From: Pandoraea pnomenusa
Lineage (GTDB): Bacteria; Pseudomonadota; Gammaproteobacteria; Burkholderiales; Burkholderiaceae
Direction of reading: 5' to 3'
Length of the DNA stretch: 64,000 nucleotides
Assembly (NCBI RefSeq): GCF_000767615.3
Contig: NZ_CP009553.3
Location: 4,464,001 to 4,528,000, forward strand
Both the position numbers and the translations under genes were made by a program. Each line of letters opens with the position of its first letter. The first letter of the stretch is position 1. Of this stretch, positions 25,237 to 41,109 are shown piece after piece. Below the pieces are notes generated by a model, which saw nothing but the letters and a program-made list of their open reading frames with translations, was not told the DNA's origin and made no database searches.

Positions 25237-25243
25237 CCCGGCC

Positions 25244-26086
25244 TCACGAAGCCGGCTGCGCCAGCGCGACCCATGCGTGAAACACGTCGGGCAGGCGATA
25301 CCAGCCGGCAAGCGGCACGGCAACGGCGAACGGCAGGCTCGCCACGGTCACGAGCAGCGCCATGGCACTCTTGACGGGCATGGCCAGGAAGAACACATTG
25401 AGCTGCTGCGCCGCGCGATTGACGAAGCCCATCGACATGTCGACCAGTACCATCACGACCATCGCGGGCAGCGCCACGGCCAGGCACATGACCTGCATCG
25501 CCTGCCACAACGACAACACCCACGCCTGGCCGCCGCCGTGCCACTGCCAGGGCAGACCGACCGGCAGGGCGAGGTAAGAGTCGTAGAGCGTGGCGAGCAG
25601 CATGTGTGCCGCGGGCGTGATGAAGAACAGGACGCAGAGCATCTGCGTGAAGGCCGTGCCGAAGATCGACGACTGTGCGCCCATCAACGGATTGAGCACG
25701 CTCGCCATGGACGCCCCGCGCATCGTGTCGATCACGTAGCCCGTCATATCGACCGCCCAGAACGGCAGCGCGGCGGCGAAACCCAGCAGGCCGCCAACGC
25801 AGAGTTCACGCACGATCACCATGCTCCAGCCCCCCCAATGTGCCGGGATCTCAGGAGCCGCGTGAACGAGCGGCACCACCGGCAACGCAAGGGCGAGCAC
25901 GAGAGCGTTGCGCAACAGGCCGGCACCGAGCATCCCCACCGAGAGCACCGGCAACAGCATGGCAAGGCCCAGCGGGCGCAACATGGCCACGCCCCACGCC
26001 AGGCACCATTCGAACAAGCCTGACCCGGCCGAAGAGAGCAGGCCGCCGAGTGTGGCGTCGGCGCCGCCAAGGAAGGAAGTGTCCAT
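25244..26086 (-). CDS. sctT: T3SS export-apparatus protein SctT
   Basis: This 280-residue multi-helix inner-membrane protein of the FliR/YscT/SsaT family completes the SctRST export gate. Hydrophobic helices are spread along its length, with the conserved VIDTMRGASMASVLNPLMGAQSS segment near the middle and KSAMALLVTVASLPFAV near the end. It includes an in-frame seven-base homopolymer at about 25830 (His-Trp-Gly-Gly-Trp), so the frame is sound there. It lies four bases after sctS and seven before sctU. Confidence 0.94.
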   Translation of the reverse strand: MDTSFLGGADATLGGLLSSAGSGLFEWCLAWGVAMLRPLGLAMLLPVLSVGMLGAGLLRNALVLALALPVVPLVHAAPEIPAHWGGWSMVIVRELCVGGLLGFAAALPFWAVDMTGYVIDTMRGASMASVLNPLMGAQSSIFGTAFTQMLCVLFFITPAAHMLLATLYDSYLALPVGLPWQWHGGGQAWVLSLWQAMQVMCLAVALPAMVVMVLVDMSMGFVNRAAQQLNVFFLAMPVKSAMALLVTVASLPFAVAVPLAGWYRLPDVFHAWVALAQPAS

Positions 26087-26090
26087 GCGC

Positions 26091-26357
26091 TCATGCCATC
26101 CGGCTGATCTGTTCGAACGTGCTGCCCGCGTAGTTGAGCAGCACATGGCCCATCCACGCGTACGTGGCCGCGAGCGTGACCGACACCGCGACCAGCTTGA
26201 TGAGGAACTGCACCGTCTGGTCCTGCACCTGCGTGAGCGCCTGAATCAGCGAGACCAGCACCCCGACGACCGACGCGACCACCACGGTCGGCAACGACAT
26301 CAGCAGCGTGAGCCAGAGCATTTCGCTCGTGAGATTGACGACGATCGCTTCGCTCAT
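26091..26357 (-). CDS. sctS: T3SS export-apparatus protein SctS
   Basis: This 88-residue two-helix protein belongs to the FliQ/YscS/SsaS family of the export gate. The helices at about residues 15-40 and 52-73 flank the conserved SLIQALTQVQDQTVQFLIK loop. Full family length. Positioned between sctR and sctT as in every Ssa-Esc type locus. Confidence 0.95.
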   Translation of the reverse strand: MSEAIVVNLTSEMLWLTLLMSLPTVVVASVVGVLVSLIQALTQVQDQTVQFLIKLVAVSVTLAATYAWMGHVLLNYAGSTFEQISRMA

Positions 26358-26375
26358 GATGTTGCCCCCCGGCCG

Positions 26376-27026
26376 TCATGCGTAGGAGAGCATCAACTGG
26401 CGCACCAGTTGTTCCCAGCCGTTCATCATCACGAAGATCAGCAGCTTGAAGGGCAATGCGATGGTCATCGGCGAGACCATCATCATGCCCATGGCGAGCA
26501 GGATGTTCGAGATCACCAGATCGATCACGACGAACGGCAGGTAAAGCAGCAGCCCGATCTTGAACGCCTCGGCAAGCTGGCTCAACGCGAAGGCCGGCAT
26601 CAGCACGAGCAGCGAATCGGCGCCCAGCCGGTCGCGATGCGCCTCGGGCCACGTCCGGCCGCCGATCCCTGCGAAGAAGTCGCGCTGGCGCGGATCGGTG
26701 TGTCGGGTGAGGAAAGCGCGATATGGCGCCAGTACGCCGGCATCGACGTCGGCAACGAAATCCTTCGACGACAGCGACACCGGGCGCGCCGCCAGATTCG
26801 CTTCGATATCGAACGCGACGGGCGCCATGATGAAACAGGTGAGAACGAGCGATAGTCCGTAGATGGCAATATTCGGCGGAATCTGCTGCGTACCTAGGGC
26901 ATTGCGAAGCAGTGCGAAGACGACGGCCAGCTTCAGGAACGCAGTCCCCAGTACCACCAGCAACGGCAAGATCGAGAGCAGCGAAAGCAGTACGACGAGC
27001 TGCACCGGATGATCGAGCAGGGACAT
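26376..27026 (-). CDS. sctR: T3SS export-apparatus protein SctR
   Basis: This 216-residue FliP/YscR/SsaR family protein forms the core of the export gate. Signature regions include TAFLKLAVVFALLRNALGTQQIPPN, SQLAEAFKIGLLLYLPFVVIDLVISNILLAMGMMMVSP and PFKLLIFVMMNGWE. The ATG at 27026 gives the standard N-terminus MSLLDHPVQLV. It begins 57 bases after the sctQ stop, the largest gap inside this operon apart from the sctO-sctP junction. Confidence 0.96.
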   Translation of the reverse strand: MSLLDHPVQLVVLLSLLSILPLLVVLGTAFLKLAVVFALLRNALGTQQIPPNIAIYGLSLVLTCFIMAPVAFDIEANLAARPVSLSSKDFVADVDAGVLAPYRAFLTRHTDPRQRDFFAGIGGRTWPEAHRDRLGADSLLVLMPAFALSQLAEAFKIGLLLYLPFVVIDLVISNILLAMGMMMVSPMTIALPFKLLIFVMMNGWEQLVRQLMLSYA

Positions 27027-27082
27027 GCGAACTCCAGGAATGACGTGGCGCGAAAGCAAGGCGCGGCAAAGGCCGAGCGATG

Positions 27083-28138
27083 TTAGGTGGACGTCGGATA
27101 TACGCCCATCGGGTCACCACCCGAAATCGGGATGGCCTCATCGCCTGAGGCGTCGGTGCCACCCTCGTCGTTCGAATCCGGTATCGGACCGGCAGCCGGT
27201 CCGATCGCGTCGATCTGCACGCCGAGGCGCCCGTCGCCGAAACGCAGGAGTTGCCCGCTGGACCAGGGTGCGCCGTCGCGCCACATCGTCAGGCAGGCAG
27301 CGGCGTGCACATTCGATGCGCCGGCGGGCGGCGACACGGCCGGCTCGCCGGCAAGCCACGCCATGAGCGCCGGAATGGGAATCGGCCTTTTCGCGATCAC
27401 CACGTCGAGGCAGGTCACGGCATCGGTTCGCATGCGCTCCACCGCGCCCCGGCCGGACGGTTGACCGTCGCGCATCGGGATGGCGTAGTCGCCGTCGATC
27501 AGCCAGTACTCACCGCTCGCGATGTCCGCCGTCACGTCGAGCAGGACGGTGTCGCCCTTGCACAGCGCGTCGCATTGCGCAACGCCGAGCGTGGCCCACC
27601 CCACCGCCAACGTGCACGGGCGCGCCGGCAGCCCTGCGGGGTCGAGCGGTTCGTCGCACGGCGTGGCCAGTCGACAGCGCTCGCGTAGCCACGATGCCGC
27701 GCCGTCGAGATACGTCAGCGCCAATCGGTGCGCGCCGCGCTGCAGGACGATGCCGATACGCCAGTCCGTCGTCACGCTCCCGGGTGTCAGATCGACGGCC
27801 TGCGGCCAGGTCGCATCGACTGCGGCGCCGCCAGGCGAAAGCGTAAGCGCCGCCGCACTCGCACGCCACGCTTGCGGTAGCGCTTCCCACGAGGGCACCG
27901 GCAGCTCCGCCGCGAGCCAGTCGGCCCACTGACGCGCGTCGCACCAGAAGCGCGTCCGGCCCGGCCCCGCCTCGTTGACGCGCGCTGTGACGATCAATCC
28001 TTCGCCGCCGATGAGAAGCCAACCGACCCGAACCTGCGTGTCGCCTTCCTGAAACATCAGACTGCCGCCGCCGGCGAGCAGGTCGTCCAACATTTGACGG
28101 TCGTCGCCCGAATACGCCGCGCAAAGGTCACGGGACAT
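27083..28138 (-). CDS. sctQ: T3SS cytoplasmic ring protein SctQ
   Basis: This 351-residue SsaQ/YscQ-like protein forms the sorting-platform pods with SctK and SctL. The C-terminal SpoA/SpoB-like domain is at about residues 250-320 (LDVVIAKRPIPIPALMAWLAGE and GQLLRFGDGRLGVQID). The N-terminal half is divergent, as usual. The last 30 residues are an acidic extension. It overlaps sctP by 11 bases. SPI-2 ssaQ also makes a short C-terminal product from an internal start; candidate internal ATGs exist here but none is certain. Confidence 0.88.
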   Translation of the reverse strand: MSRDLCAAYSGDDRQMLDDLLAGGGSLMFQEGDTQVRVGWLLIGGEGLIVTARVNEAGPGRTRFWCDARQWADWLAAELPVPSWEALPQAWRASAAALTLSPGGAAVDATWPQAVDLTPGSVTTDWRIGIVLQRGAHRLALTYLDGAASWLRERCRLATPCDEPLDPAGLPARPCTLAVGWATLGVAQCDALCKGDTVLLDVTADIASGEYWLIDGDYAIPMRDGQPSGRGAVERMRTDAVTCLDVVIAKRPIPIPALMAWLAGEPAVSPPAGASNVHAAACLTMWRDGAPWSSGQLLRFGDGRLGVQIDAIGPAAGPIPDSNDEGGTDASGDEAIPISGGDPMGVYPTST

Positions 28139-28610
28139 AGCGCGCCTCGACTTCGACCGTGACAGGCAGCTTCATGCGCGCGGTCAGCGCCCGGGAGAAT
28201 TGCCCGCGACGCGCCAGCAAGCGCCGGAACATCGTGAGCCGCACGCAGAGCAGACTGACGGTGATCCCCAGCCGCCCCCGACGGGCTTCGACGACCAGCG
28301 TGTCGAGCACTCCGCCATGCACGACCACGCGCAATGCGCTGGCGCCGTCCCAATTGACCTCCTGCCGTGCATGCCACACGCGCAGCCAGCGCAGCACGTC
28401 GGCCGGGCCGCTCACGCGCGCGACATGCTCGCCGGTCAGCGAGAACGTGCGCTCGCCGCCTTCGCTGCCAATGTTGTCGTTGCTGCCGTGGCTGCCGTCA
28501 CAGCGGCGTTCAAAGCGACTCGTCGCGCCTTCGCGCCGCCGCGGTGACGATCTGTCTTGCGGACTGACGACGGGATCGGCACACAGGCCGCTGCGGTGGG
28601 TGATGTTCAT
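28128..28610 (-). CDS. sctP: T3SS needle-length regulator SctP (SsaP-like)
   Basis: This 160-residue protein sits at the position of ssaP. The N-terminal third is Ser/Arg/Gly-rich and disordered-looking, and the C-terminal half is a compact domain (GVLDTLVVEARRGRLGITVSLL, then LTARMKLPVTVEVEARYVP) like the substrate-switch domain of YscP/SsaP proteins. SctP proteins vary greatly in length and sequence, so the call rests mostly on position between sctO and sctQ. The ATG at 28610 (MNITHRSG) is favoured over a frame extension. Confidence 0.72.
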   Translation of the reverse strand: MNITHRSGLCADPVVSPQDRSSPRRREGATSRFERRCDGSHGSNDNIGSEGGERTFSLTGEHVARVSGPADVLRWLRVWHARQEVNWDGASALRVVVHGGVLDTLVVEARRGRLGITVSLLCVRLTMFRRLLARRGQFSRALTARMKLPVTVEVEARYVP

Positions 28611-28671
28611 CGTGAAGTCCTCATCATGGCGTGGTGAAGAAAACCATTCGTGCAATCGCCGTGTCTCTCGG

Positions 28672-29106
28672 TCAACGGCGGTATAACTTCGATAGCTCGC
28701 GAAATTTTTCCTGCTTGCGGGCGTTCGCTTGCAGTTGCTCGTGCAGTCGAATCACATCCGTCCGCGCCTGCTGCGCATGCGCGAGGGCCGCCGCGTGCCG
28801 CGACGCGGCATCGCCGAGCGCGACGCGCGCCGCCTCCACGCGGCGCAAGGCTTCGACCGCCTCGCGGCGCGCATAGACGCCGCCTCGCGACAGGCACTCA
28901 CGCCAACGGCGACGCTGCGTCTCGCAGGCCTGCTCGCACGTCCTCACCGCTGCCTCGGCATCGTGGGCATCGGCCTGCGCGCGGCGCATCGCGGCACGCA
29001 GGCCAACGTCGCGGTGCCTCGCCAGCGCGACCAGTTCGGCGAGCGCCGTCGATTCGACCTGCACCCGGCCGCCCGTGGTCTTCAGTTCGCGAGATGTTCG
29101 AGCCAT
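28672..29106 (-). CDS. sctO: T3SS ATPase stalk protein SctO
   Basis: This 144-residue protein is almost entirely predicted helical coiled coil, rich in Ala, Arg and Glu with heptad-like spacing, as in YscO/SsaO/FliJ. Those proteins form the central stalk that couples the ATPase to the export gate. It overlaps the end of sctN by 25 bases and precedes sctP, exactly the SPI-2 order. Sequence identity to SsaO is low, which is normal for the family. Confidence 0.82.
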   Translation of the reverse strand: MARTSRELKTTGGRVQVESTALAELVALARHRDVGLRAAMRRAQADAHDAEAAVRTCEQACETQRRRWRECLSRGGVYARREAVEALRRVEAARVALGDAASRHAAALAHAQQARTDVIRLHEQLQANARKQEKFRELSKLYRR

Positions 29107-30446
29107 GCGCAGGTATCGTCGAAAGGCGCCACGTCGTGTTGCGCCTGACACAGGAACTGGCGGATGTCAGGCGCGCGCGCCAACGCGTCGTCCGTGTCCG
29201 GATCGTTGCCCGCCTGGTACTCGCCAACGCGCACCAGCAGCTCGACCTCCGCCGCGAGCGCCATCGCGCGCCTCACGCGTGTCGCGTTGTCCACATGCCG
29301 CGCCTGGGCGACCTGCGTCATCACGCGCGAGAGGCTTGCCGGTATATCAATGGCGGGGTAGTGGTTTTCCTGCGCCAGACGGCGCGAAAGCACGATGTGG
29401 CCGTCGACGATGGACCGGACCTCGTCGGCCAGCGGTTCATCGAGGTTGTCGCCCTCGACGAGTACCGTATAGAACGCCGTGATGCTCCCTCGCTCGCCAT
29501 TGCCGGCGCGTTCGAGCAAACGGGGCAAACGGGCATAGAAGCTGGGCGGCAAGCCGCTCGCGGCGCCGAGTGGTTCCCCGGCCGCCACGCCGATATCGCG
29601 AACCGCCCTGCCGAAGCGGGTCAGCGAATCCATGAGCAGCAGCACGTGCTTGCCTTCGTCGCGAAACGCTTCGGCAATCGCGGTGGCGGTATAGGCCGCC
29701 TTCATGCGTTCGAGTGCGGGACGATCCGACGTTGCGACCACGCACACCGTGCGCGCACGCGCCTCGGCGGTAAGGGCCTGCTCGAGGAACTCACGCACTT
29801 CGCGACCGCGCTCGCCGATGAGCGCGAGCACGATCACGTCGGCCTGCGCGCCGGCGCACATCATGGCAAGCAACGTGCTTTTTCCGCCGCCGGCCGCGGC
29901 GAAAATGCCCAGCCGTTGCCCACGACCACACGTGAGCAGGCCATCGATGGCGCGAATGCCGATGGGCAACGGCGTCGAGACGAGGCACCGCGTGAGCGCG
30001 CCGGGTGGTTCGGCGTCGAGCGAGCGCCAGATCACATCGGTCGGCACGTCGTGCGGAATCGGTGCCCCCGCCGACAGCGAACGACCGAGTCCGTCCAGCA
30101 CCTGTCCGATCAACCGGTCTCCGACCGCCACGCGTGAATCCGTGCCCAACGCCCGTACGAGCGCGCCGTTGGCAACGCCGTTCGGCTGCGCGTACGGCGC
30201 GAGCCAGACATGTCGCCCTTCGACCGCGATGACTTCCGCATCGAGCAACGGCGACATGACGCGGCATTGCTCGCCCAGCGCCGCACCGGGCAGCCGCGCG
30301 CGCATCGCGTTCGAGGTGACCTTGTCGATGCGCCCATGGCGGACTTCGGCCGACGACGTGCGGCGCCAGTCGTCACACGCCTTGCGCTGTCCGTCGAGCA
30401 CTCGGCGCAATCCGTTGGCAATGCGGGACGCATCGGGGCGGCGCAT
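29082..30446 (-). CDS. sctN: T3SS ATPase SctN
   Basis: This 454-residue hexameric ATPase of the FliI/YscN/SsaN family releases chaperones and unfolds substrates. The Walker A loop AAAGGGKST is at about residues 183-191, Walker B is HVLLLMDSLTRFGRA, and the family segment GLPPSFYARLPRLLERAGN is intact. The ATG at 30446 sits one base past the sctV stop; an N-terminal extension in the same frame has no homology. Confidence 0.97.
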   Translation of the reverse strand: MRRPDASRIANGLRRVLDGQRKACDDWRRTSSAEVRHGRIDKVTSNAMRARLPGAALGEQCRVMSPLLDAEVIAVEGRHVWLAPYAQPNGVANGALVRALGTDSRVAVGDRLIGQVLDGLGRSLSAGAPIPHDVPTDVIWRSLDAEPPGALTRCLVSTPLPIGIRAIDGLLTCGRGQRLGIFAAAGGGKSTLLAMMCAGAQADVIVLALIGERGREVREFLEQALTAEARARTVCVVATSDRPALERMKAAYTATAIAEAFRDEGKHVLLLMDSLTRFGRAVRDIGVAAGEPLGAASGLPPSFYARLPRLLERAGNGERGSITAFYTVLVEGDNLDEPLADEVRSIVDGHIVLSRRLAQENHYPAIDIPASLSRVMTQVAQARHVDNATRVRRAMALAAEVELLVRVGEYQAGNDPDTDDALARAPDIRQFLCQAQHDVAPFDDTCAWLEHLAN

Positions 30447-30447
30447 G

Positions 30448-32541
30448 TCAGTGCGCTCCCTGCAGGTCGATCGTGCCGAGCACGCGCACATGCGGCTCGT
30501 CCGCCACTTCCTGGAACGACAGCACCGGCAGGTCGGCGCGCTCGCGCTCGATCAGCTTGCGCACGAAGCGCCGCACATCCATCGCGGTGAGGAGCACCGC
30601 GGGCGTGCCGTCATGCGCCTGCATCGCACCGTCGAGCGCTTCCAGAATCGCGTCGGTCTGCTCGTGGCTCAGGTCGGCGTACGAACCCGACGACGTTTGC
30701 CTCACCGCCGCCCGCACCGTGTCCTCGATGCCGCGGCCCACGTTCCATCCGGTAATGTGTTCGGCGCCCCGGCGAAAACGCCGCGTGATATGGCGGCGCA
30801 GACTCAGCCGCACATACTCCGTCAGCATGATCTGATCGCGCTCGCGCGGCGCCCATTCGATCAGCGCTTCGAACACCCGCCGAAGATCGCGGATCGAGAC
30901 GCCTTCGGCCACCAGGCGCTGCAGCACTTCCGCCGTCCGGCTGATCGGCAGTTGCCGTTGCAGCTCCTTGACCAGCTCGCCGTAGCGATCTTCCATGCCG
31001 TCCATCAGATAGCGCGCCTCCTGCACGCCCAGAAAGTCCGCCGCGTGCGCGTCGATCACCAGCGAGACGCAGTGCGCCACGCGATCGGCGCCCTCGAGCA
31101 CCGCGCCCCCCTGTCCCCGCCACGCGTCGCGCTGCGCGTCGTCGAGCCAGAACAACACCTGGCCGCCGAACGGCAGCGGCGTCTCGCGCGGCGCGCCCGC
31201 GGCAAGATTGCGCAGTGCCGGGATCGGATGCGAAACATCGTGGCGCGCCAGCGCCTCGCCGGGCATCACCTCGAGCGTCATCACGCTCTCGTGATACAGC
31301 TGGATGTCCAACGTGCCGTCGGCGAGCGCGGCATCGACGACGACCGCCACCTCCGGCATCGGCACGCCGAACTGCTCGAACTTCTCGTGACGCAAGGCGT
31401 CGATGCGCGCGGCCAGTGTCGCGACACCGCCCTCCGGGTCCGCCAGTCCCGCGCCGACACGCGCCAGCAGCGGTTGCGCTCCAGGACGTCCGCCGTTGGC
31501 GTTCGGCGTGCTTCCCGGGTCGGCATGCGCCGCCGCGGCCGCGCGCTGACCGCGCCCGACCCACCAGGCGCCGCTACCGGCGAGCGCGGCGAGCAGCAGG
31601 AAGTAATGCATCGGAAAGCCCGGGATCAGGCCGAAGAGCAGCATGACCACCGCGGCGAGTGTCAGCGAACGCGGCTGGGCCGCCAGTTGATCGGTCAACT
31701 CGCGCGCGAGGTTGCGGCGGTGCTCGCCCGGCACGCGCGTCACGATGATGCCGGCCGTCACCGAGATCAGCAGCGCCGGAATCTGCGAGACAAGCCCGTC
31801 GCCGATGGAAAGAATGGCGTAGATCGCGGCCGCGTCTCCGGCGCTCATGCCGCGCATGAAAACGCCCACGCCGATGCCGCCGAGGAGATTGACCACGATG
31901 ATGACGAGCCCCGCGATGGCGTCGCCCTTGACGAACTTCATCGCCCCGTCCATCGCACCGTAGAACTGGCTCTCCTTTTGCACGACGCGTCGCAGGCGCT
32001 TGGCTTCGCCAGCGTCGATGGTGCCCGCGCGCAGATCGCCGTCGATGCTCATCTGCTTGCCGGGCATGCCGTCGAGCGAGAAACGGGCACCGACTTCGGC
32101 CACCCGCTCCGAGCCTTTCGTGATCACGATGAAGTTCACGATGGTGATGATGAGAAACACGATCATGCCCACGACGATGTTACCGCCCGCCGCGAAGTCG
32201 CCGAAGGTGTAGACGATATCGCCCGCGTCGGCGTGCAGCAGGATCAGGCGACTCGTGCTGATCGTGAGGCCGAGGCGGAACAGCGTGGTCATCAGCAGCA
32301 CGGACGGGAATGCGGAGAAGTCCAGGGGCTCGTTGATGTAGAGCGCCACCATCAGCAGCAACAGCGATACGCCGAGATTGAGCGCGATGAGCAGATCCAT
32401 CACCGACGGCGGCATCGGGATGATGATCATCAGTACGGTCACGAGCAGCAGCGCGGCCAGGACGATATCCTGTCGCCCCGCGGCGGCGCGAAGCCAGTCG
32501 CTCACCCGTCGCGTGCGGTTCATTCGGCCCATGCGGCTCAT
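30448..32541 (-). CDS. sctV: T3SS export-gate protein SctV
   Basis: This 697-residue FHIPEP-family protein (FlhA/LcrD/SsaV) forms the nonameric export-gate ring. Seven to eight helices occupy the first 320 residues, with the conserved LLMTTLFRLGLTISTSRLIL and the FHIPEP loop SLDGMPGKQMSIDGDLRAG. The C-terminal half is the cytoplasmic ring domain (VSIRDLRRVFEALIEWAPRER). The ATG at 32541 overlaps the stop of the restored ssaM-like frame as ATGA; alternative ATGs at 32532 and 32523 exist. Confidence 0.96.
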   Translation of the reverse strand: MSRMGRMNRTRRVSDWLRAAAGRQDIVLAALLLVTVLMIIIPMPPSVMDLLIALNLGVSLLLLMVALYINEPLDFSAFPSVLLMTTLFRLGLTISTSRLILLHADAGDIVYTFGDFAAGGNIVVGMIVFLIITIVNFIVITKGSERVAEVGARFSLDGMPGKQMSIDGDLRAGTIDAGEAKRLRRVVQKESQFYGAMDGAMKFVKGDAIAGLVIIVVNLLGGIGVGVFMRGMSAGDAAAIYAILSIGDGLVSQIPALLISVTAGIIVTRVPGEHRRNLARELTDQLAAQPRSLTLAAVVMLLFGLIPGFPMHYFLLLAALAGSGAWWVGRGQRAAAAAHADPGSTPNANGGRPGAQPLLARVGAGLADPEGGVATLAARIDALRHEKFEQFGVPMPEVAVVVDAALADGTLDIQLYHESVMTLEVMPGEALARHDVSHPIPALRNLAAGAPRETPLPFGGQVLFWLDDAQRDAWRGQGGAVLEGADRVAHCVSLVIDAHAADFLGVQEARYLMDGMEDRYGELVKELQRQLPISRTAEVLQRLVAEGVSIRDLRRVFEALIEWAPRERDQIMLTEYVRLSLRRHITRRFRRGAEHITGWNVGRGIEDTVRAAVRQTSSGSYADLSHEQTDAILEALDGAMQAHDGTPAVLLTAMDVRRFVRKLIERERADLPVLSFQEVADEPHVRVLGTIDLQGAH

Positions 32542-32920
32542 GCGTGCCCCGCACGGTGCCGACGGGCATCGACGCGTTCGAGCAGCCGGCGCATACGAGA
32601 AAGGCATCCGAACCATGCAAGGGCCTGCAATCGGGCCGGCGGTGTCGCAACGAGCATTGCGCCCCCTGCGCCACGCAGGCACGCACCGGAATGCCGGGCG
32701 TCCACTCCGGCGCACACGCTTGCAACAGCAACGGCAGGCACCGCACCGCGTGCCCGTCCGGCTGCGGCAGCGCGAGCGTCAACGTAATGCCGTAAGCATC
32801 GACGTCGGTCATCAGCCAACATGGCGCAAGCGGCACCCGCATGCGCCATGCGATCCGCCGCGGCGGCAGCGACAACAATTCGAAGAGCTGTTCGAGCTTG
32901 CGTTGGGTCTGGGTGTCCAT
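32538..32920 (-). pseudogene. SsaM/CesL-like T3SS gatekeeper partner, frameshifted
   Basis: The gene starts at 32920 (MDTQTQRKLEQLFELL) at the ssaM position before sctV. The first frame matches SsaM until about IPVR near residue 85, then homology moves to the -1 frame, which ends ...LLERVDARRHRAGHA and stops in an ATGA overlap with sctV. SsaM has the parallel IPQR...RDGLAM...FLESQCVHG pattern. Restoring one base gives 127 residues against 122 for SsaM. A G5 tract (C5 on + at 32662-32666) lies at the transition, and one more G would repair it. Uncorrected, translation runs out of frame about 360 bases into sctV. SsaM works with SsaL to hold back effectors until translocators are secreted. Confidence 0.75.
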
Positions 32921-33033
32921 CGTCGGCAGACGTTGACGTTCGGCGTGGTTGGGCGAGGTTCGATGGCGACGCGTCGCCACCGTGCCGGCATGTCGGCGTG
33001 TCGACCCACCGAAGTGCCGATGGACCGTCACGG

Positions 33034-33051
33034 CGGCATGCCGGCATGCCG
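33034..33051. repeat. Perfect 18-bp palindrome between ssrB-like and ssaM-like genes
   Basis: CGGCATGCCGGCATGCCG is its own reverse complement. It sits in the 237-bp non-coding gap, about 115 bases before the ssaM-like start, where the promoter of the sctM-to-sctU operon should be. A related partial copy (TGCCGGCATGTCGGCGTG) lies near 32987. It could be an operator or a terminator-like hairpin of the regulator gene; no T-run follows. Confidence 0.6.
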
Positions 33052-33157
33052 ATACGTTGATATGTGCAGGGTTCGGGAAGCGGGCATGGTCGCGCACTCC
33101 GCGCGCACGCGGCTATCCGGTGCAGACCTGAACTTGGCCCCCGGCGCCGGCTTTCGC

Positions 33158-33816
33158 TCACAGCATCATTCTCAGGCGATAGGCCCAATTCACGATGTCG
33201 GCCACGTTGTGCGCGCCAAGCTTTCGCATCATGTTCAGCCGATGCGTCTCCACGGTCTTCACGCTGATCGACAACAACTGCGCGATGTCGCGATTGCGCT
33301 GCCCCTCCGCCACGAGCTTGAGCACCTGGCGCTCGCGTAGCGTGAGCAGCCGCTCGGGCTTCTCGACAGTGCCCAGCGCCGGCGGACGCGGTGCGTTCGC
33401 CGGATCGAGCGCGCCGCCGCAAACCGCCGGATCGACGTAGCGATCCCCCGCATTGCCTGAATTGCCGCCTGAACCAGTGTCTCGCGCGGACTGCTTTTGA
33501 GGACGAACGCCGAGGCGCCGGCTTCGAGCGACAGACGCGCGCGTTCGCTGTCGTCGCTGGCCGAATTGACCACGATGCGCAACTCGGGCCAGCGTTGCGC
33601 GCATTGCCGGATCACGTCGACACCGTCCATGCCCGGCAGCCCGAGGTCCAGCATCATCAGCGTCGGTGCGTGAATCACGCAGGCACGGTATACGTCCAGC
33701 CCGTTGGCGACTCTGGCCAGCACGCACCATCCAAGACGCTCTTCGAGCAGACGGCAAAGCCCGTCGGCCAGCAATTCATGATCCTCGACAACGATGACAC
33801 CGATACCCCCCGTCAT
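33158..33816 (-). pseudogene. SsrB-like LuxR/NarL response regulator, frameshifted
   Basis: The receiver domain (VIVVEDHELLADGL, phospho-acceptor Asp in MMLDLGLPGMDG, Lys in FVLKSSPRETL) is in one frame, and the DNA-binding domain (LTLRERQVLKLVAEGQRNRD...SVKTVETHRLNMMRKL) is in the -1 frame. The switch falls at ATGCGGGGGATC (C5 on + at 33445-33449): a sixth G gives MRGDRYVDP, matching RYIDP of SsrB, and a 219-residue protein against 212 in Salmonella. The HTH resembles SsrB strongly, so this is the probable master activator of the locus. As written the product ends after about 185 residues without an HTH. A GAGGAG ribosome-binding site precedes the ATG. No sensor kinase is adjacent. Confidence 0.88.
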
Positions 33817-34142
33817 TCGCGGCTCCTCGACAGTTGATCATTAGCATTCATGCGGATTTTTGTTCACTCTCTTTCGACTTCGGTCCCGCGGCGCGAATCT
33901 TGCGCCTTCGCCTGATCCTCGACATGGGAAAACGCCGCAAACCCGACGCCCTCGCGACAACTTCAGGTCTGCGCCGTATGGCGTCGCGCACGCGGCGCCC
34001 GATAATGACCGTCCTCGCTCGCCGATCGACGGCCGACGCCCATTCACGAACGTGGACCGTATCCTCGCCGGAGATCGGTGTTGCGGCGCCTCCCCGACTT
34101 CGGCTCTCCCGTTCCACCGCATTCCCGACTCCACTTCCGTCC
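33817..34142. other. Divergent promoter region, ssrB-like and ssaB-like genes
   Basis: These 326 bases separate the regulator from the plus-strand ssaB-sctCD operon. The part at 33828-33880 is AT-rich relative to its surroundings (TTGATCATTAGCATTCATGCGGATTTTTG) and is the likely promoter zone. The remainder is open in the ssaB frame but has no recognisable protein sequence, so ssaB could start further upstream than annotated. Confidence 0.4.
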
Positions 34143-34640
34143 ATGCGCCTGCCGTTCGCCCTTGCCTCGCTCGACTGGATCGCTCCCTGCGACATTCAGG
34201 GCTCGCGCATCGTCCTCGAACTCGACGGCCAGCGCGGCTGGACCTGCGCGGCCGGCGACGGCTACTGCGTGGCCACGAACGTCACGCCGGCGGCTGCCGT
34301 CGAGACCCCGGGCCGGCCGCCGCTGGCGAGCGCGTTCCGCGACGACGCCGCGCTCGCCCACTGGCTCGCTCGCCTCACGCTCGCGCTCGCCGCCGAGCCG
34401 GCGTTGCGCGATGACAGTCTGTGCCTCGCGACCGACGCACTCTGGTGGGTTCACCGCTTCGATAACTCGGCCCCGGCCGCACAGGTCGAGGCCCATCTGC
34501 GCAGACAGTTGCTCGCCTGCGCGATGGCTGTCGCATGGGACGCGGACAGCACGCCACGCCCCGGGCGTCCGTCGACGAGCACGCCACGAGACGGCATCGC
34601 CGCGGCCGACTTCCGGCGCCGGCCGCCGCGACAGCGCTGA
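34143..34640 (+). CDS. SsaB/SpiC-like T3SS protein
   Basis: This 165-residue protein begins MRLPFALASLDW and occupies the ssaB (spiC) position before sctC. The central part LARLTLALAAEP...LATDALWWVHRFD...LRRQLLACAMA aligns with SpiC LAYVTLLLAAHP...LTADGGWLNGYY...LALTCIL by eye, with the same spacing and length. In Salmonella SpiC acts with SsaL and SsaM in ordering secretion of translocators before effectors. A Pro/Arg-rich tail of about 35 residues is extra. The start is uncertain because no strong ribosome-binding site is seen. It ends two bases before sctC. Confidence 0.62.
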   Translation: MRLPFALASLDWIAPCDIQGSRIVLELDGQRGWTCAAGDGYCVATNVTPAAAVETPGRPPLASAFRDDAALAHWLARLTLALAAEPALRDDSLCLATDALWWVHRFDNSAPAAQVEAHLRRQLLACAMAVAWDADSTPRPGRPSTSTPRDGIAAADFRRRPPRQR

Positions 34641-34642
34641 CC

Positions 34643-36273
34643 ATGCGTGTCGAGTTCTCGCGCCGTCTGGCGCCCTCCCTCCCGTGGCATGCGCTGCTTG
34701 CCATCGTGCTGGCGCTCGCCCCCGCCGTTGGAGCGACGATCACGCCCGTCTGGCGCGGCGGGCCGTTCGTCTTTCAGAGCACCGGAACCCCGTTGGTCGA
34801 ACTGCTGCGCGACTTCGGGGCGCATCACGGCATGCCCACTGTCGTGAGCGAGCAAGTCGACGATCGTTTCATCGGAACGTTACCTGCGGGGTCTGCACAG
34901 GCGACGCTCGATGCACTTTCGGAACGTTATCGGCTTTCGTGGTACTTCAACGGCCAGACGCTGAACATCTATAAGTCCAGCGAGGCGGCGCGACGCGTGG
35001 TGCCGCTGCGTTTCGCGTCGACCGGCGACTTGCTCGGGCACCTTCGGGAGGCGGGCGTGCTGCACCCGCGGCACTGCGTGGCGCGGGCGATTCCGGCAAC
35101 GCACGCGCTCGAGATCACGGGCGTGCCGGCCTGTCTGGAGACCGTGTCCATGCTCGCCGATTACGTCGAGCGCGACGCGCGCGACCAGCAGGAAAGCGAA
35201 GAGACCATCAAGATATTTCCCCTGAAATTCGCGACGGCGGACGACACCAGGTACTCTTATCGCGGGCAGGAAGTCGTCATCCCGGGCGTCGTCAGCGTAC
35301 TCAAGGAGCTTGTTCTCGGCGCCGGCCCGCTGACCGCGACGGCGACCGGCGACGCGTCCACCGAGGGCATCGGCAATGCGATGACGGCCGGCGCGGGCGC
35401 GTCGCTGTCGGCCGCCGCGCGCAGCAGCACGCCACGCTTCTCGGCCGACCCACGCCGCAATGCGGTGATCGTGCGGGAGCGAAGACGCAACCTGCCGATC
35501 TACGGCGATCTCATCTCGCAACTCGATATCCCGCCGCGCCTGGTCGATATTTCCGTCGCCATCATCGACGTCAACGCCAGCGACATTGCCGAGCTCGGCG
35601 TCGATTTCTCGGGAAGCGCGCGAATTGGCGGGTTCGGTGCGGTTGCGCTGAACGGTCAGATGCACGAGGGCGACGGCGGCACGTTCACGACCGTCGTCGG
35701 GGATACCAACAAGTTCATGATCAACCTGAGTGCGCTCGAAAGAAACTCCAAGGCACGCGTGTTGTCCCGGCCGTCGATCGTCACCCTGGACAACATGCAG
35801 GCAGTGCTCGATCGCAGCGTGACGTTCTACACGAAGGTCTCCGGCGAGAAGGTGGCCAGGCTCGAGAGCGTGACGTCAGGCTCGCTGCTGCGCGTGACAC
35901 CGCGCCTCGTTCCGGGCGTTGGAGGTACCGGGAACCAGGGGAGCGCACGAGACGCCCCCGCGCCCGAGCAGGTGATGCTCACGCTCAACATCGAAGATGG
36001 CGGCGAGGTGCGCAGCGAACGCAATACGCGCGACGAAGTGCCGACGATCCGCAACTCGTCGATCTCCACCCATGCCACGTTGCAGGCGGGGCAAAGCCTG
36101 CTTCTCGGGGGTTCGTCCAGGACGCGCAGCGCGAGCACGAGCGCAAGATCCCGCTGCTGGGCGACCTGCCGCTCATCGGCCGCCTCTTCAGTTCCACGAG
36201 CAACCGGAGCGACAGCGTCATGCGCCTGTTCCTGATCAAGGCCGAGCCGGCCCAAGGCATGCCCAGTCCGTGA
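34643..36273 (+). pseudogene. sctC: T3SS outer-membrane secretin SctC, C-terminus frameshifted
   Basis: A signal peptide (about 1-32) is followed by N0/N1 ring domains (TPLVELLRDFGAHHGMPTVVSE) and the secretin domain (VDISVAIIDVNASDIAELGVDFS, KARVLSRPSIVTLDNMQA). At GQSLLLGG the frame fails: the G5 tract at 36107-36111 is followed by nonsense ending at 36235. In the -1 frame, which needs one more G, the sequence continues FVQDAQREHERK then IPLLGDLPLIGRLF, the secretin C-terminal signature, to a stop at 36273, two bases before sctD. Restored length is 543 residues. Without it the protein would lose the last beta-barrel strands and part of the C-terminal region and probably could not assemble. 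Confidence 0.92.
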
Positions 36274-36275
36274 CC

Positions 36276-37673
36276 ATGCTGACGATGACCTTGCTCGATG
36301 GTCCACTCGCCGGACGTCCGATGCCGCTGCCCGCAGGCATGCTCACCATCGGCGACGCCGATTCGGATATCGCCGTGACGCTCGAGCACGGCGCGCGTGT
36401 CACGCTGAGCGTGGACGACGACGGCGTGCGCTTGCTGACGGCCGCGCCGCTCTGGGTGGACGGTGTACCTGTCGCGTCCCCCGACGACAATTGGTGCGAC
36501 GACGGCGACGGCGACGGCGCCGCAGCCCGGCCACCCTCGGCACCCGACACGTCCTGCCTGCCGCTGCATGCCGTCATCGACCTGGCCGGCATGGCCTTTC
36601 GGCTCGACGATGGCAGCGATCCAACACCCTGCCCGATGCCGCCGCGTCCGGCACGTCGACCGGCGGCGCCGCGCTCGCTTGCGCCGTCCCACAAGCCCCA
36701 GGTCGCGCGGCGGTCCCTCGCCTCGCCCGACGCCCGCGCCGCTCGTCGCCCTCGCCGTCACCGCGGGTCACTTCCGTGGATCGCCGTCGCGGGCGTATCT
36801 TCGCTGATCGTCGCCGCAGGCGCCGCGATGTGGCGCACCGGCTCTACCGGTCAGGCCCCGGGCGCGCCGGAACCGGACGCGTTATCGGCACTCGCGGCGC
36901 GCATCGCACCCAACGTCGTGCTCGCCAATCGCGATGGCGCCGTCCGTCTCACTGGCGGCTGCATCGACGACGATGCGCGCGCCCGGCTGCGCGCCGAAGC
37001 CCGGTGGCTGGGCAAGACGGTGAGCGACGAGACCTGGTGCCCGGCGAACGCCATCGAGACCACGAGGACGGTGTTGCGATTGCATGGCTTTGCGACGGCG
37101 CACGTGGAAGCCGCACCGGACGGCGAGATCGTCGTCAGCGGCCCGTTCGTGGCGGATGCCCGCTGGCGAGCCGCCTCCGACGCCCTCGACGCGCTCGCGT
37201 TGCCATACGGCTGGCGCGTGGCCGAGGGGTCGGCCGACGCGTTGGACAGGCTGGTGAGAACGCTGCGCAACGCCGGTCAACTGCGGGGCCTCGACATTTC
37301 GCGCGATCGCCGCGGTTGGCGCCTCACCGGCGCCCTGCCGCCCGGCCGGCAAGCGGCGCTCAAGGGCATCGTCGACACATGGAACCGCTCAGCAGACGCA
37401 TCGCCCGCGCGCATCGAACCGTTGCCGCCCACGATCCCGACACTGGCCGAGACGGGATTCTCCGCGCCGCTCGTGAGCATCGGCGGCTCGCCCGAAGCGC
37501 CCTCGCTCACGCTCGCCGACGGCACACGTCTCGCCCAGGGGGTACGCCTGCCCGGTGGCACGCGCATCGTCGCCATTTACGCCGACGGCGTGTCAATCGG
37601 TGCACCGGACCGGCTCTACTACCTTCCCCTGACTCCGGAGACCCATCTTGGCGACGCACCTGACGCAGCTTGA
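36276..37673 (+). CDS. sctD: T3SS inner-membrane ring protein SctD
   Basis: This 465-residue protein of the PrgH/YscD/SsaD family forms the outer of the two inner-membrane rings. A cytoplasmic FHA-like domain (about 1-110, LLDGPLAGRPMPLPAGMLTIGDADSDIAV) is followed by an Arg/Pro-rich linker, one membrane helix at about 167-185, and a long periplasmic part with repeated ring-building modules (GEIVVSGPFVADARWRAASDAL, WRLTGALPPGRQAALKGIV). The last segment overlaps the ssaE-like gene by 26 bases. Reads in a single frame from start to end. Confidence 0.88.
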   Translation: MLTMTLLDGPLAGRPMPLPAGMLTIGDADSDIAVTLEHGARVTLSVDDDGVRLLTAAPLWVDGVPVASPDDNWCDDGDGDGAAARPPSAPDTSCLPLHAVIDLAGMAFRLDDGSDPTPCPMPPRPARRPAAPRSLAPSHKPQVARRSLASPDARAARRPRRHRGSLPWIAVAGVSSLIVAAGAAMWRTGSTGQAPGAPEPDALSALAARIAPNVVLANRDGAVRLTGGCIDDDARARLRAEARWLGKTVSDETWCPANAIETTRTVLRLHGFATAHVEAAPDGEIVVSGPFVADARWRAASDALDALALPYGWRVAEGSADALDRLVRTLRNAGQLRGLDISRDRRGWRLTGALPPGRQAALKGIVDTWNRSADASPARIEPLPPTIPTLAETGFSAPLVSIGGSPEAPSLTLADGTRLAQGVRLPGGTRIVAIYADGVSIGAPDRLYYLPLTPETHLGDAPDAA

Positions 37674-37887
37674 GGATCGTCTGGCCGTCGCGCCCGCTGC
37701 GGTTGCCCGCGAGGTTTCGTCGACGCTCGACGCCGCACGCGCGACGCTGGCACGAGCGGCACGAACACCGCTCACGCCCGCCGAGCACGCACAGGTGCGA
37801 CTTCAGCAACGTGCCGTCGACGCCGCCGGAGCGATTCTCGAAAGCCTGGCACGCCGCTACGGCACATCGTACGGAGCTTCGGCGTGA
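37648..37887 (+). CDS. SsaE/EscE/YscE-family small T3SS protein
   Basis: This 79-residue helical protein starts at a TTG with a CGGAGA ribosome-binding site inside the end of sctD. The N-terminus THLTQLEDRL closely resembles SsaE (TTLTRLEDLL), and the C-terminus AAGAILESLARRYG matches the second helix of the family. YscE/EscE proteins are co-chaperones that cap the needle subunit with an SctG partner, and the SctG-like gene lies at 42310-42723 in the other operon. Confidence 0.78.
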   Translation: MATHLTQLEDRLAVAPAAVAREVSSTLDAARATLARAARTPLTPAEHAQVRLQQRAVDAAGAILESLARRYGTSYGASA

Positions 37888-38104
37888 CGGTCCGGATAGT
37901 TGCGACTGCTGCGACTGAGGCGATCACGGCGACCGCGATGAAGGCGGCGGCGCGCCAGGCGTGCGCAGAAGCGACAACCCTGCACCGACGACCAAAGTCG
38001 AGATCGACGGCGCATGGGAACCTTCGGCATCGCGCGGCGCGCGCGGCGACCGGTCGCACGCCACGCCGATGCGCCTTCGATTTCCTCATCACTTCACGCA
38101 CATC

Positions 38105-38518
38105 ATGCCCAGTTACGACCTCGCGCAAACGCTCGTCGAAGCCCTGAAGTTGATCGGCTGCGATCCCAGCAAGATCGACGCCGTCGACAATCATTCGCCC
38201 ATCGAGCTGACGTTCAACGCTTCGCCCAGCATCATCGTCGAAACCCTCGAGAATCAGGTGTGCAGCATTCACGCGGTCGTGGCCACCGACGAAGCGGCGC
38301 GATTGCACCGGGCCAACAGCGAGCGGCTGCTGCAATTCCTGATCGAGCCCGCCGAATGGGCCGTCACCGGACACGTGCAATTGCGCGAGCGCGACAACCG
38401 CTTGATTCTTCACGCACAGGTCAGGGAAGACGCCGCGGCAGAACCGGAACCCTTCGCGCAAGCGCTAACCGACTTCTATGACCGGATCAAGCTCTGCCGC
38501 GAACATCTGCGCGCGTGA
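38105..38518 (+). CDS. InvB/SpaK-family class IB T3SS chaperone
   Basis: This 137-residue acidic protein matches the InvB/SpaK family of effector chaperones by eye: DLAQTLVEALKLIGCDPSKIDAVDNHSPIELTF parallels SpaK [33 protein letters not shown], and the end PFAQALTDFYDRIKLCREHL parallels VFAEILHEFYQRMEIL. These chaperones belong to SPI-1/Mxi-type systems, whereas this locus is SPI-2-like. No effector gene is adjacent. The ATG giving MPSYDLAQ is chosen from family alignment; no good ribosome-binding site is seen. The 217 bases separating it from the ssaE-like gene hold no other gene. Confidence 0.78.
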   Translation: MPSYDLAQTLVEALKLIGCDPSKIDAVDNHSPIELTFNASPSIIVETLENQVCSIHAVVATDEAARLHRANSERLLQFLIEPAEWAVTGHVQLRERDNRLILHAQVREDAAAEPEPFAQALTDFYDRIKLCREHLRA

Positions 38519-38655
38519 TCCTCGCGATCTTCTCCATTCCGCTTTCCGGCCCCCCGCCTCGCCCCCCTGTACATCCTGCGCTCGCCCCCCGCGCGCCGTA
38601 GCGCACCCAATGGGCGCCCCCGCCCCTCGCTGCCGCCCAGCCACCCACACCACCG

Positions 38656-39789
38656 CTATCGCGTCTCGTCGCCCTCGCGGGCGAGCTCCGTCCTCCATGC
38701 ATCGAGCGCCTCGTCGAGTGCCTCGCGTTGCGTTTCGTCGCGGAAGCACCCGTCATGTGCCGACTTCACCAGGCCGGTGAGTTCGCGCGCGAACGCATAT
38801 CGTATTCGCGGCGTCGCGATGCCCAGATAGTGCGCCCGCTGCGACAGCCATTCGACGCCCGCCCACGACTGATCGAGCAACGTGAGCGTCTCGGAGATCA
38901 TGGTGTCGGTCTCGAACGTACGGCAGCCCGCCGCGCGCATCGTCGTTGCCGACGCCTCGCACGAAGCCTCCAATGAGAGGAACAGCACAACGCGGCGCAA
39001 ATCGTCGACGACCTCCGCCAGGCGCCGCACGTCGGCATCCGCGTGCGTCGCGCCGAGCTCCATGCCGAGGGCTTGCATCAGCGCGCGCAAGCGTGCGCGT
39101 CGCTGCGGAAATCGTCGACATGTATCGAACCATTGCGTCAGCGACTGCTGCGGTCCCTGCGACTGACGATAGAGCGACTTGAGTTGTTGCAGCAACGCGG
39201 CGCCCGGACGGCGGCCGCCGCCGCACTCCAGCGCGGCAAACGCCTCGATCGCCCAGGTCTGCGTATCCGTCAGCACTTCCAGCGTCTTTCGCAATCGGGA
39301 GCGCGTCGGGTGGTCAAGGCCGCTCTCGGCCAGCCAGGCCGCAACGACCAACGCCGCGTGGCCGCCCGACAACTGCGCCTGTCGAATCCGTTGGAGCGGA
39401 TCGGGAACGAACGGCAGATCGCGCAGTTGCTCGCGAATCGTTTCGAACTGCGCACCGTGCACGCGCGCGTAGCGAATCATCTGTTGCTCGAAGAGCGCCC
39501 GCGCACGCTGCTTGTCGTCGCGAATGTCGCGCAGGCCTGTGCGTCGAAAGCGCACACCAAGCGCGAAACTGAGGTTCTCCTGAGACTCGGCGACAGCGGC
39601 TTTGTCGTTCTGCGCGATCGCCGCTTCGATCAACGCGACATGCCCGGGCACGTCGGTCGTCGGGTCGTGCGACAGACGCGCATGCCCCTCCAACGCCAGC
39701 CACGCCTGCGCATCGGGGGGCTCGGCGGTACTGCCCGCCTGCGCGGACCCGGCCTCCGTAGGCATCGACGAACGCACGCGCTCAACCAT
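38656..39789 (-). CDS. sctW: T3SS gatekeeper SctW (SsaL/SepL-like)
   Basis: This 377-residue protein sits where ssaL lies in SPI-2, after sctL. It has an unstructured N-terminus of about 50 residues, a HrpJ/YopN-like helical middle (ENLSFALGVRFRRTG, LTDTQTWAIEAFAALECGG) and a C-terminal TyeA-like domain (TLTLLDQSWAGVEWLSQRAHYLGIATPRIRYAFARELTGLVKS), fused in one chain as in SsaL/SepL/InvE. It orders translocator and effector export with the SsaM and SpiC homologues. A six-base C run near 39715 reads in frame. It overlaps sctL by eight bases. Confidence 0.88.
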   Translation of the reverse strand: MVERVRSSMPTEAGSAQAGSTAEPPDAQAWLALEGHARLSHDPTTDVPGHVALIEAAIAQNDKAAVAESQENLSFALGVRFRRTGLRDIRDDKQRARALFEQQMIRYARVHGAQFETIREQLRDLPFVPDPLQRIRQAQLSGGHAALVVAAWLAESGLDHPTRSRLRKTLEVLTDTQTWAIEAFAALECGGGRRPGAALLQQLKSLYRQSQGPQQSLTQWFDTCRRFPQRRARLRALMQALGMELGATHADADVRRLAEVVDDLRRVVLFLSLEASCEASATTMRAAGCRTFETDTMISETLTLLDQSWAGVEWLSQRAHYLGIATPRIRYAFARELTGLVKSAHDGCFRDETQREALDEALDAWRTELAREGDETR

Positions 39790-40471
39790 AGGCGACCTCC
39801 AGTCCGGGGCCGGGATGCAGGCGCGCCAGGATCGCCGCCAGATCGGCGTCGAGGTCCAGGCAAACAGTGACCCACTCGCTTTCGATGCGCGCCTGACGCC
39901 CGCTCAGCGCCGGGTCTGGCACGCACGCCAGCACGATGTCCGCCGCTCGCAGCGCGTGCGCCACGACATCGCGATGCGCGGGTGGAACCCGCAGCGTGAG
40001 CGCGCCCTCCCTTACGAGATCGGGCAATGCACGCGCAACACGCAGTGCGTAGCGCTCGCCCACTTCCATCGCATCGACGAAACTCGACAGCGCGACACCC
40101 ATCGCATCGGCCACGCGCCGCTCCAGCGAACGAACGATGTCGCGCTCCAGCGCGGCTTCTCCGGCCAGCCATTCGACGGCTTGCATCACGGCGTCGTGAC
40201 GCGCCGCCTCCGCCATCGCCGCCGCCTCCTGCCCGGCCTGCTCGCGCGCCTGCGCCAGCCACGTCTCGCGCAAGGCCTGCGCATCGCGCCGCGCCTGCTC
40301 GCGCTCCGCCAGCGCGGCGTCGCGCTCGGCCTGCGCCTGCGCCATCCACTGCACCCGCTGGTCCGACTGGCCGCGCAGACGTGCGAGTGCGTCAGCGCAA
40401 ACCACGGGCCCCGCCGGCGCGGGGCCCTCGATCGTCGTGATCGCCGTCAATGCGATTTCGATGACATACAT
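39782..40471 (-). CDS. sctL: T3SS ATPase regulator SctL
   Basis: This 229-residue protein of the FliH/YscL/SsaK family is the spoke linking the ATPase to the sorting platform. A long Glu/Arg/Ala-rich coiled coil at about residues 40-110 precedes the conserved C-terminal domain (SLERRVADAMGVALSSFVDAMEVGERYALRVARAL...LRVPPAHRDVV). The ATG is within sctK, giving a 25-base overlap. Confidence 0.86.
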   Translation of the reverse strand: MYVIEIALTAITTIEGPAPAGPVVCADALARLRGQSDQRVQWMAQAQAERDAALAEREQARRDAQALRETWLAQAREQAGQEAAAMAEAARHDAVMQAVEWLAGEAALERDIVRSLERRVADAMGVALSSFVDAMEVGERYALRVARALPDLVREGALTLRVPPAHRDVVAHALRAADIVLACVPDPALSGRQARIESEWVTVCLDLDADLAAILARLHPGPGLEVAYG

Positions 40472-41109
40472 AGCATCCTCTCGAGCGCCGCGAGGCGCGC
40501 CCACATGTCGTCGTCGGCCACGCCATCGGCGATGCCCCCACCCGCCTCGGCGGCATCGTGCGCCGGTGGCAGCAAAATGCGGGCCGCAGTGACGATCGTT
40601 GCCAGGTCGGCCGCATCCGGCATCGCGACGGCATCGAGGCATCGCCCGGTGCGGCGCATTGCCGCCGCCACGATCCGATCGGGCGGACAGGTCGCCCGCG
40701 CGGGCCATTCGGCACATGCGAGCAGCAGGCGGTCGCATTGCCAGGCGTCGAGCCATGGCGACAGCGCGCGACGATACGCGCCGAGCAACAGATAGTCGGG
40801 GCACCCCATCGTTCGCAATCCATACGCCACCGCCACGCGGCGCAGCGTCGGCAGACGCCGCAATCGCGCTTTTGCGGCTTCGCTGCATGGGGGTACCGCG
40901 TGCGGCCCCCGTGCCTCACGAACGGCAGGCCAACCGCGGCGCACGATCAGTTGCGCGTCGATGGATGCGCGACATGCAGGATGTCGACGGTAGGCGTCTC
41001 GCCATGGCGTCATCTCGAAGGCATGCCACCACCCTTCGTCCATCTGTCCTCCCGGCTGCCAGATCAGCCTTGCGAGTCGGACCGCACCCGTGTCGCCGCG
41101 CGCCGTCAT
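40447..41109 (-). CDS. sctK: T3SS sorting-platform protein SctK
   Basis: This 220-residue protein lies between sctJ and sctL, the position of sctK (unnamed ORF STM1410 in SPI-2). It has the SctK-type pattern of helical repeats with LRRLPTLRRVAVAYGLRTMGCPDYLLLGAYRRAL in the middle. SctK connects the SctQ pods to the inner-membrane ring. The ATG overlaps the sctJ stop as ATGA, showing translational coupling. Confidence 0.78.
   Translation of the reverse strand: MTARGDTGAVRLARLIWQPGGQMDEGWWHAFEMTPWRDAYRRHPACRASIDAQLIVRRGWPAVREARGPHAVPPCSEAAKARLRRLPTLRRVAVAYGLRTMGCPDYLLLGAYRRALSPWLDAWQCDRLLLACAEWPARATCPPDRIVAAAMRRTGRCLDAVAMPDAADLATIVTAARILLPPAHDAAEAGGGIADGVADDDMWARLAALERMLCMSSKSH

What the first reader, a model, noticed from the sequence alone, without database searches (positions are those of the whole stretch)
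32538..36273. Three frameshifts within 3.6 kb, each one G short of six, while longer runs elsewhere are correct
The regulator, SsaM-like and SctC genes each require G6 but have G5. By contrast, a C7 in sctT, C6 in sctW, purB and queA are all in frame, so general homopolymer undercalling does not explain the pattern simply. Options are local assembly error, loss under selection, short-tract phase variation, or an expression mechanism based on slippage that would gate regulator, gatekeeper partner and secretin together. The three genes are functionally distinct control points.
Basis: partly seen in the sequence, partly recalled or inferred. Interest (0 to 1): 0.88.

Follow-up and report, generated by a model that had tools for sequence, protein, structure and literature searches.

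The report
Three frame breaks in a secretion-system locus
Three neighbouring genes of a bacterial type III secretion system are out of frame in this genome sequence but in one frame in nearly all relatives compared; the likeliest cause is leftover long-read sequencing error, or a very recent loss in this strain, rather than a new switch.

Summary
An SsaM-like gene, an SsrB-like response regulator and the secretin gene sctC each change frame at a five-base G tract (coding strand), within 3.45 kb. The genome length equals that published for Pandoraea pnomenusa DSM 16536T, a PacBio/HGAP assembly with no short-read polishing described. Near-identical intact proteins exist for SctC (cluster of 29) and the regulator (cluster of 7). 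Other Pandoraea genomes keep one frame in 26 of 26 (regulator), 25 of 25 (SsaM-like) and 25 of 26 (sctC; the exception is another lesion), with no G run above four at the junctions, so no slippery tract is conserved. mutS and mutL are open. In 567 kb of surveyed coding sequence I accepted one other homopolymer break. The clustering is tighter than uniform error would give, so the cause must be local: a badly called stretch of assembly, or a recent loss of this T3SS in the strain. The data cannot separate these. Phase variation and programmed slippage are poorly supported. Most likely an artefact, ordinary in either case.

The parts
32660..32920 (-).
   Evidence: 86% identical to P0241, which continues past the break
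32662..32666 (-). five-base tract at the frame break of the SsaM-like gene
32538..32648 (-). SsaM-like gene, last part in another frame (36 codons and stop)
   Evidence: 81% identical to P0241 residues 92-127
33439..33816 (-). SsrB-like response regulator, receiver part (126 codons as they stand)
   Evidence: Pfam Response_reg; 99% identical to P0121 over 124 residues
33445..33449 (-). five-base tract at the frame break of the regulator
33158..33433 (-). SsrB-like response regulator, LuxR/GerE DNA-binding part in another frame (91 codons and stop)
   Evidence: Pfam GerE; 100% identical to P0121 residues 129-219
34643..36106 (+). sctC secretin, first 488 codons
   Evidence: NCBIfam TIGR02516 over cut-off; 99.6% identical to P0001
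36107..36111 (+). five-base tract at the frame break of sctC
36112..36273 (+). sctC secretin, last part in another frame (53 codons and stop)
   Evidence: 100% identical to P0001 residues 491-543
23018..32532 (-). rest of the T3SS cluster, left block: lytic transglycosylase-like, SctU, T, S, R, Q, P-like, O-like, N, V
   Evidence: each matches 10 of 10 named Pandoraea loci; SctU, T, V over NCBIfam cut-offs, SctN and SctQ below their Sct-specific ones; SctS, R, P-like and O-like named by position and recall
36276..42628 (.). rest of the T3SS cluster, right block: SctD, SctE, SpaK-type chaperone (+), SctW, L, K, J, I (-)
   Evidence: each matches 10 of 10 named loci; families; SctL below cut-off, SctK named by position

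Best explanation
The three breaks are most likely residual homopolymer-length errors left in a PacBio-only assembly of Pandoraea pnomenusa DSM 16536T, grouped because one short stretch of the assembly was called badly. On this reading the strain carries a complete SPI-2-type T3SS with an SsrB-like regulator, an SsaM-like protein and a secretin, as its relatives do. Shown: three frame breaks at G/C homopolymers, intact near-identical proteins for two of the three genes, no further break detected in the rest of the cluster, and a published assembly method in which no short-read polishing is described. Inferred: that this record is that strain (from its length), that its reads would show continuous frames, and that the grouping comes from a weak stretch of assembly, for instance where the circle was closed. 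DnaA lies at the very end of the deposited sequence, so the sequence was probably turned to it and the original contig end lies at an unknown internal place.
For: All three breaks sit at G/C homopolymers. Genome length 5,389,285 equals that published for DSM 16536T; methods: PacBio RS II P5C3, HGAP v3, 244.62-fold coverage, one overlapping end removed, no short reads described (PMC4744841, parts 1 and 2 of 3 read). A high-GC PacBio/HGAP assembly at 262-fold, Quiver-polished, still held 205 indels, nearly all in G or C homopolymers (PMC4832174, passages). Both halves of SctC and of the regulator are 99.2-100% identical to intact proteins P0001 (29 members) and P0121 (7 members), taken as the same species from the identity since their source is not shown; so little decay has followed the breaks. 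In one search, 19 of 20 further genes matched 10 of 10 named loci (the AraC-like one lay beyond their flanks); six whose C-terminus was not reached in every locus were rechecked from the relatives' side and showed no further piece in another frame, except 1 of 14 relative frames for SctQ. A fourth homopolymer break lies in a carbamoyltransferase-like gene about 385 kb away. mutS and mutL are open. DnaA lies at 5387762-5389273 of 5389285.
Against: Clustering: one other homopolymer break was accepted among 575 genes (567,021 coding bases, 89 in-gene G/C runs of six or more), so a uniform error process gives this cluster with probability about 0.0003-0.014 (10-44 errors); 3 of 4 against 1 of 74 runs gives Fisher p = 0.0002 (the 73 unbroken runs are, and the grouping was chosen after seeing the data). 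A fourth run in the same stretch (33806-33811, at the regulator's start) is six long. The homopolymer spectrum is ordinary. The paper does speak of a 'polished assembly'. All three genes belong to one presumably dispensable system. The survey did not recover the SsaM-like break, found, so it undercounts. No reads were available. For the SsaM-like gene no same-species copy was seen.
Confidence: 0.57

Rival explanations
1. Real, recent, strain-specific loss of the T3SS: replication slippage at G tracts broke the regulator, the SsaM-like gene and sctC in this strain, under relaxed selection in culture or chronic infection.
For: The three breaks fall in one accessory system and in 3.45 kb. Intact near-identical copies of two of the genes exist, so the loss would be recent. 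Another species, P. anhela (L040), has an independent sctC lesion at another place, and its annotated protein is 433 aa. The strain is a cystic fibrosis isolate obtained from a collection.
Against: Three lesions of one type with no further break detected in the rest of the cluster; mutS and mutL open; a fourth break of the same type in an unrelated gene.
Confidence: 0.34
2. Short-tract phase variation, as for the C6/C7 tract in bvgS of Bordetella pertussis: the genes switch on and off by reversible tract-length change.
For: In bvgS a six-base C tract changes length and switches a virulence regulator (PMC1891110, passages). Broken and intact forms of two of the genes both exist at about 99% identity.
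Against: Loci of other Pandoraea have no G run above four at any of the three junctions: 53 of 53, 51 of 51 and 27 of 27 loci (some genomes counted twice). Three tracts would have to be short in one culture at once.
Confidence: 0.06
3. Programmed expression by transcriptional slippage or ribosomal frameshifting that gates three genes together.
For: Slippage is discussed for Shigella T3SS genes (search listing only; details recalled).
Against: Continuous frames in other Pandoraea genomes: 26 of 26 (regulator), 25 of 25 (SsaM-like), 25 of 26 (sctC; the exception is a different lesion). The slippage study held concerns A/T runs with a typical length of nine (PMC1088944, passages; it allows that other repeats may slip); five G is far shorter.
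Confidence: 0.02

Closest known systems
Residual G/C homopolymer indels in PacBio assemblies (example PMC4832174)
   Same: long-read assembly of a high-GC genome; breaks at G/C homopolymers; intact near-identical copies elsewhere
   Different: here three fall within 3.45 kb on a low background
bvgS C6/C7 frameshift of Bordetella pertussis (PMC1891110)
   Same: short G/C tract; a virulence regulator is among the genes hit
   Different: no such tract at the same places in other species; no evidence of both states in one culture; three genes at once
Strain-specific pseudogenes of T3SS genes
   Same: one accessory system hit; P. anhela sctC has an independent lesion
   Different: all lesions of one type and no further decay detected
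SPI-2-type T3SS (ssa/ssr) of Salmonella
   Same: matches to the SsaJ, SsaK and SsaI models; relatives of the regulator are named SsrB by one source
   Different: the scores for those three models lie below their curated cut-offs; no sensor kinase gene was noticed beside the regulator (not searched for)

Membership tests
residual long-read homopolymer error | break sits at a homopolymer | tested here: met
   3 of 3 sites
residual long-read homopolymer error | assembly made without short-read polishing | tested here: met
   through the genome length matched to PMC4744841, whose methods describe only PacBio/HGAP; the identity of the record is inferred
residual long-read homopolymer error | independent sequences of the species are intact | tested here: met
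   for 2 of 3 genes, P0001 and P0121, same species inferred from identity; not seen for the SsaM-like gene
residual long-read homopolymer error | errors scattered over the genome | tested here: inconclusive
   one other accepted in 575 genes; clustering unexpected under uniformity
residual long-read homopolymer error | reads of the strain disagree with the consensus | not testable with these tools
   no reads held
phase-variable contingency tract | tract kept in relatives | tested here: not met
   longest G run at the junctions 2-4 in 53, 51 and 27 loci
phase-variable contingency tract | both states within one clone | not testable with these tools
   needs deep amplicon reads
programmed slippage or frameshifting | out-of-frame arrangement conserved | tested here: not met
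   same frame in 26/26, 25/25 and 25/26 genomes
programmed slippage or frameshifting | long A/T slippery run | tested here: not met
   five-base G/C runs against nine A/T in PMC1088944 (passages)
type III secretion system, SPI-2-like | core apparatus genes present | tested here: met
   SctU, T, V, C, D, J over NCBIfam cut-offs, SctI and SctW by domain models over cut-off; SctN, L, Q below their Sct-specific cut-offs; SctS, R, K not shown by a family model
type III secretion system, SPI-2-like | membership of the SPI-2 branch | tested here: inconclusive
   SsaJ, SsaK and SsaI models matched below their cut-offs; no tree was built

The most novel reading that the evidence does not exclude
The type strain carries a coordinated off-state of its T3SS, made of three independent short-tract contractions in a regulator, a gatekeeper partner and the secretin, which could be reversible and would be a multi-locus short-tract contingency switch.
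Probability: 0.04. Interest if true: 0.7.

Novelty: not a real feature. Interest (0 to 1): 0.16.

Why it matters
If an artefact, the reference genome of a species isolated from cystic fibrosis patients wrongly shows a dead T3SS, which would mislead comparative work. If real, the type strain is a natural T3SS loss and should not be used to judge the system. A reversible three-gene switch would be unusual, but the evidence does not favour it.

Tried and rejected
Genome-wide undercalling: rejected, since G/C run counts are ordinary (6/5 ratio 0.177 in G000 against 0.161 and 0.198 in two relatives). Mutator strain: mutS and mutL open; other repair genes not tested. Conserved slippery tract: not found. 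First frame surveys gave many candidate breaks, most of them from shadow reading frames or overlong starts; they were replaced. Controls: one break in G020 (127 intact, 4 partial, 22 absent, 23 of low identity) and three in G004 (126 intact, 1 partial, 9 absent, 7 of low identity); all four lie within the first 25-61 residues of the query and I judged them overlong starts. In one search, six candidates in G000: two are T3SS genes, one the carbamoyltransferase-like gene, and three were dropped (4462421 and 4920939 as N-terminal over-extension by judgement, 4564302 as a shadow frame). Controls: G020 had 11 candidates in 562 genes (three near a five-base G/C run, two of them deep in the gene), G004 two in 270 (neither near a run). 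Candidate 4811651 was dropped as two adjacent genes. Same-species DNA could not be reached: the plasmid collection had no match, and the genome collection may leave out near records.

Full report
What is in the sequence. The window lies in a closed 5,389,285-base genome. Loci with the same secretion gene at about 79-88% identity are Pandoraea. The length equals that published for Pandoraea pnomenusa DSM 16536T (PMC4744841, parts 1 and 2 of 3 read), so I take the record to be that strain; this is an inference. Between about 23 and 43 kb lies a type III secretion cluster. NCBIfam models over their cut-offs give SctU, T, V, C, D and J, domain models give SctI and SctW, and Pfam gives SctE; SctN, Q and L match below their Sct-specific cut-offs.

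The breaks. The SsaM-like gene, the SsrB-like response regulator and sctC each have two halves in different frames that meet at a five-base G tract on the coding strand. The regulator's halves carry the receiver and the LuxR-type DNA-binding domains. A test with 143 core genes shared by two relatives found 134 intact, 3 partial, 3 absent and 3 broken in 464 kb of this genome; the three broken ones were exactly these. The same test gave one and three breaks in the two relatives, all within the first 25-61 residues of the query, which I judge to be overlong starts.

Relatives. Both halves are in the same frame in 26 of 26 genomes (regulator), 25 of 25 (SsaM-like) and 25 of 26 (sctC) (by loci 53 of 53, 51 of 51 and 26 of 27, some genomes counted twice). 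The exception is P. anhela (L040), whose sctC has another lesion at another place. The longest G run at the junction is two to four bases in every locus, so the tract itself is not shared. P0001 (cluster of 29 sequences) is an intact SctC, 99.6% and 100% identical to the two halves; P0121 (cluster of 7) is an intact regulator, 99.2% and 100% identical. Their source is not shown; I take them as the same species from the identity. For the SsaM-like gene the nearest protein is intact but only 86% and 81% identical.

The rest of the cluster. Nineteen of 20 further genes matched 10 of 10 named loci; the AraC-like gene lay beyond their flanks. The end of the gene was not reached in every locus for six of them (SctU in none of 10, SctQ in 6, the gene at 34144 in 4, the transglycosylase in 8, SctK and SctJ in 9). 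Rechecked from the relatives' side, these six showed no further piece in another frame, except 1 of 14 relative frames for SctQ.

The background. G/C run lengths are ordinary. In a wider survey of 575 genes (567,021 coding bases, 89 G/C runs of six or more inside them), six candidate frame changes appeared. Two are T3SS genes, one is a carbamoyltransferase-like gene split at a six-base G/C run, and three were dropped as false. That survey did not recover the SsaM-like break, so it undercounts. The carbamoyltransferase-like gene matches in one open frame of at least 355 codons in 26 of 31 other Pandoraea genomes (four of them with a stop flagged inside the match), is in two pieces in G020, and has only distant matches in the other four. 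The same survey gave 11 candidates in 562 genes of G020, two of them deep in a gene beside a five-base G/C run, and two in 270 genes of G004, neither beside a run. mutS and mutL are open in this genome.

Weighing. The type of lesion, the absence of further decay, the intact near-identical copies and the PacBio assembly point to residual homopolymer error; a comparable PacBio assembly held 205 indels, nearly all in G/C homopolymers, before short-read correction (PMC4832174, passages). Against this stands the grouping: with the low background seen here, uniform errors would rarely place three in 3.45 kb. A local weakness of the assembly is therefore needed, for instance near the place where the circle was closed. 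DnaA lies at the end of the deposited sequence, so it was probably turned to dnaA and that place is internal and unknown. The alternative is a real and recent loss of this T3SS in the strain, for which the grouping in one system and the independent P. anhela lesion speak. I give 0.57 to artefact, 0.34 to real loss, 0.06 to phase variation and 0.02 to programmed slippage.

Literature. PMC4744841 reports 508 pseudogenes in its table, and a genome length there (5,395,224) that differs from its text; its virulence section does not mention a T3SS. Searches for Pandoraea with 'type III secretion' (45 papers, 15 listed), with 'pathogenicity island' and 'pnomenusa' (one paper), for P. pnomenusa with 'complete genome' and 'PacBio' (15 papers, 12 listed) and with 'frameshift' (four papers) listed no title or abstract start about these breaks. 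Of those hits I read parts of PMC4744841 and passages of PMC4556143 and PMC5635052 and no other full text.

Noticed in passing
G000 4882453-4883618 (locus L198): A carbamoyltransferase-like gene is split into its two domains (PF02729, PF00185) in different frames at a six-base G/C run; the homologue in G020 is in two pieces at another place, while 26 other Pandoraea genomes have one long open frame (four with a stop flagged in the match).
   Followed up: partly
L040 (Pandoraea anhela), about 6303-6444: The sctC gene of P. anhela has an independent frame lesion, not at the site of this window; its annotated protein is 433 aa.
   Followed up: partly
G000 4329497-4331560, 5227422-5229488 and 109660-111750: Three further SctV/FlhA-like genes at 38-47% identity (the second with one stop flagged inside the match), so the genome probably carries more T3SS-type loci.
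   Followed up: no
G020 780025 region: A gene in another closed Pandoraea genome changes frame beside a five-base G/C run, suggesting such breaks are not special to this assembly.
   Followed up: no
PMC4744841, Table 1: The genome paper gives two lengths (5,389,285 in the text, 5,395,224 in the table) and 508 pseudogenes (10.45% of genes), while few broken genes turned up in the survey here.
   Followed up: partly
window 42938-43909, - strand: An AraC-type regulator gene flanks the T3SS cluster; it lay beyond the flanks of the ten named relative loci compared.
   Followed up: no
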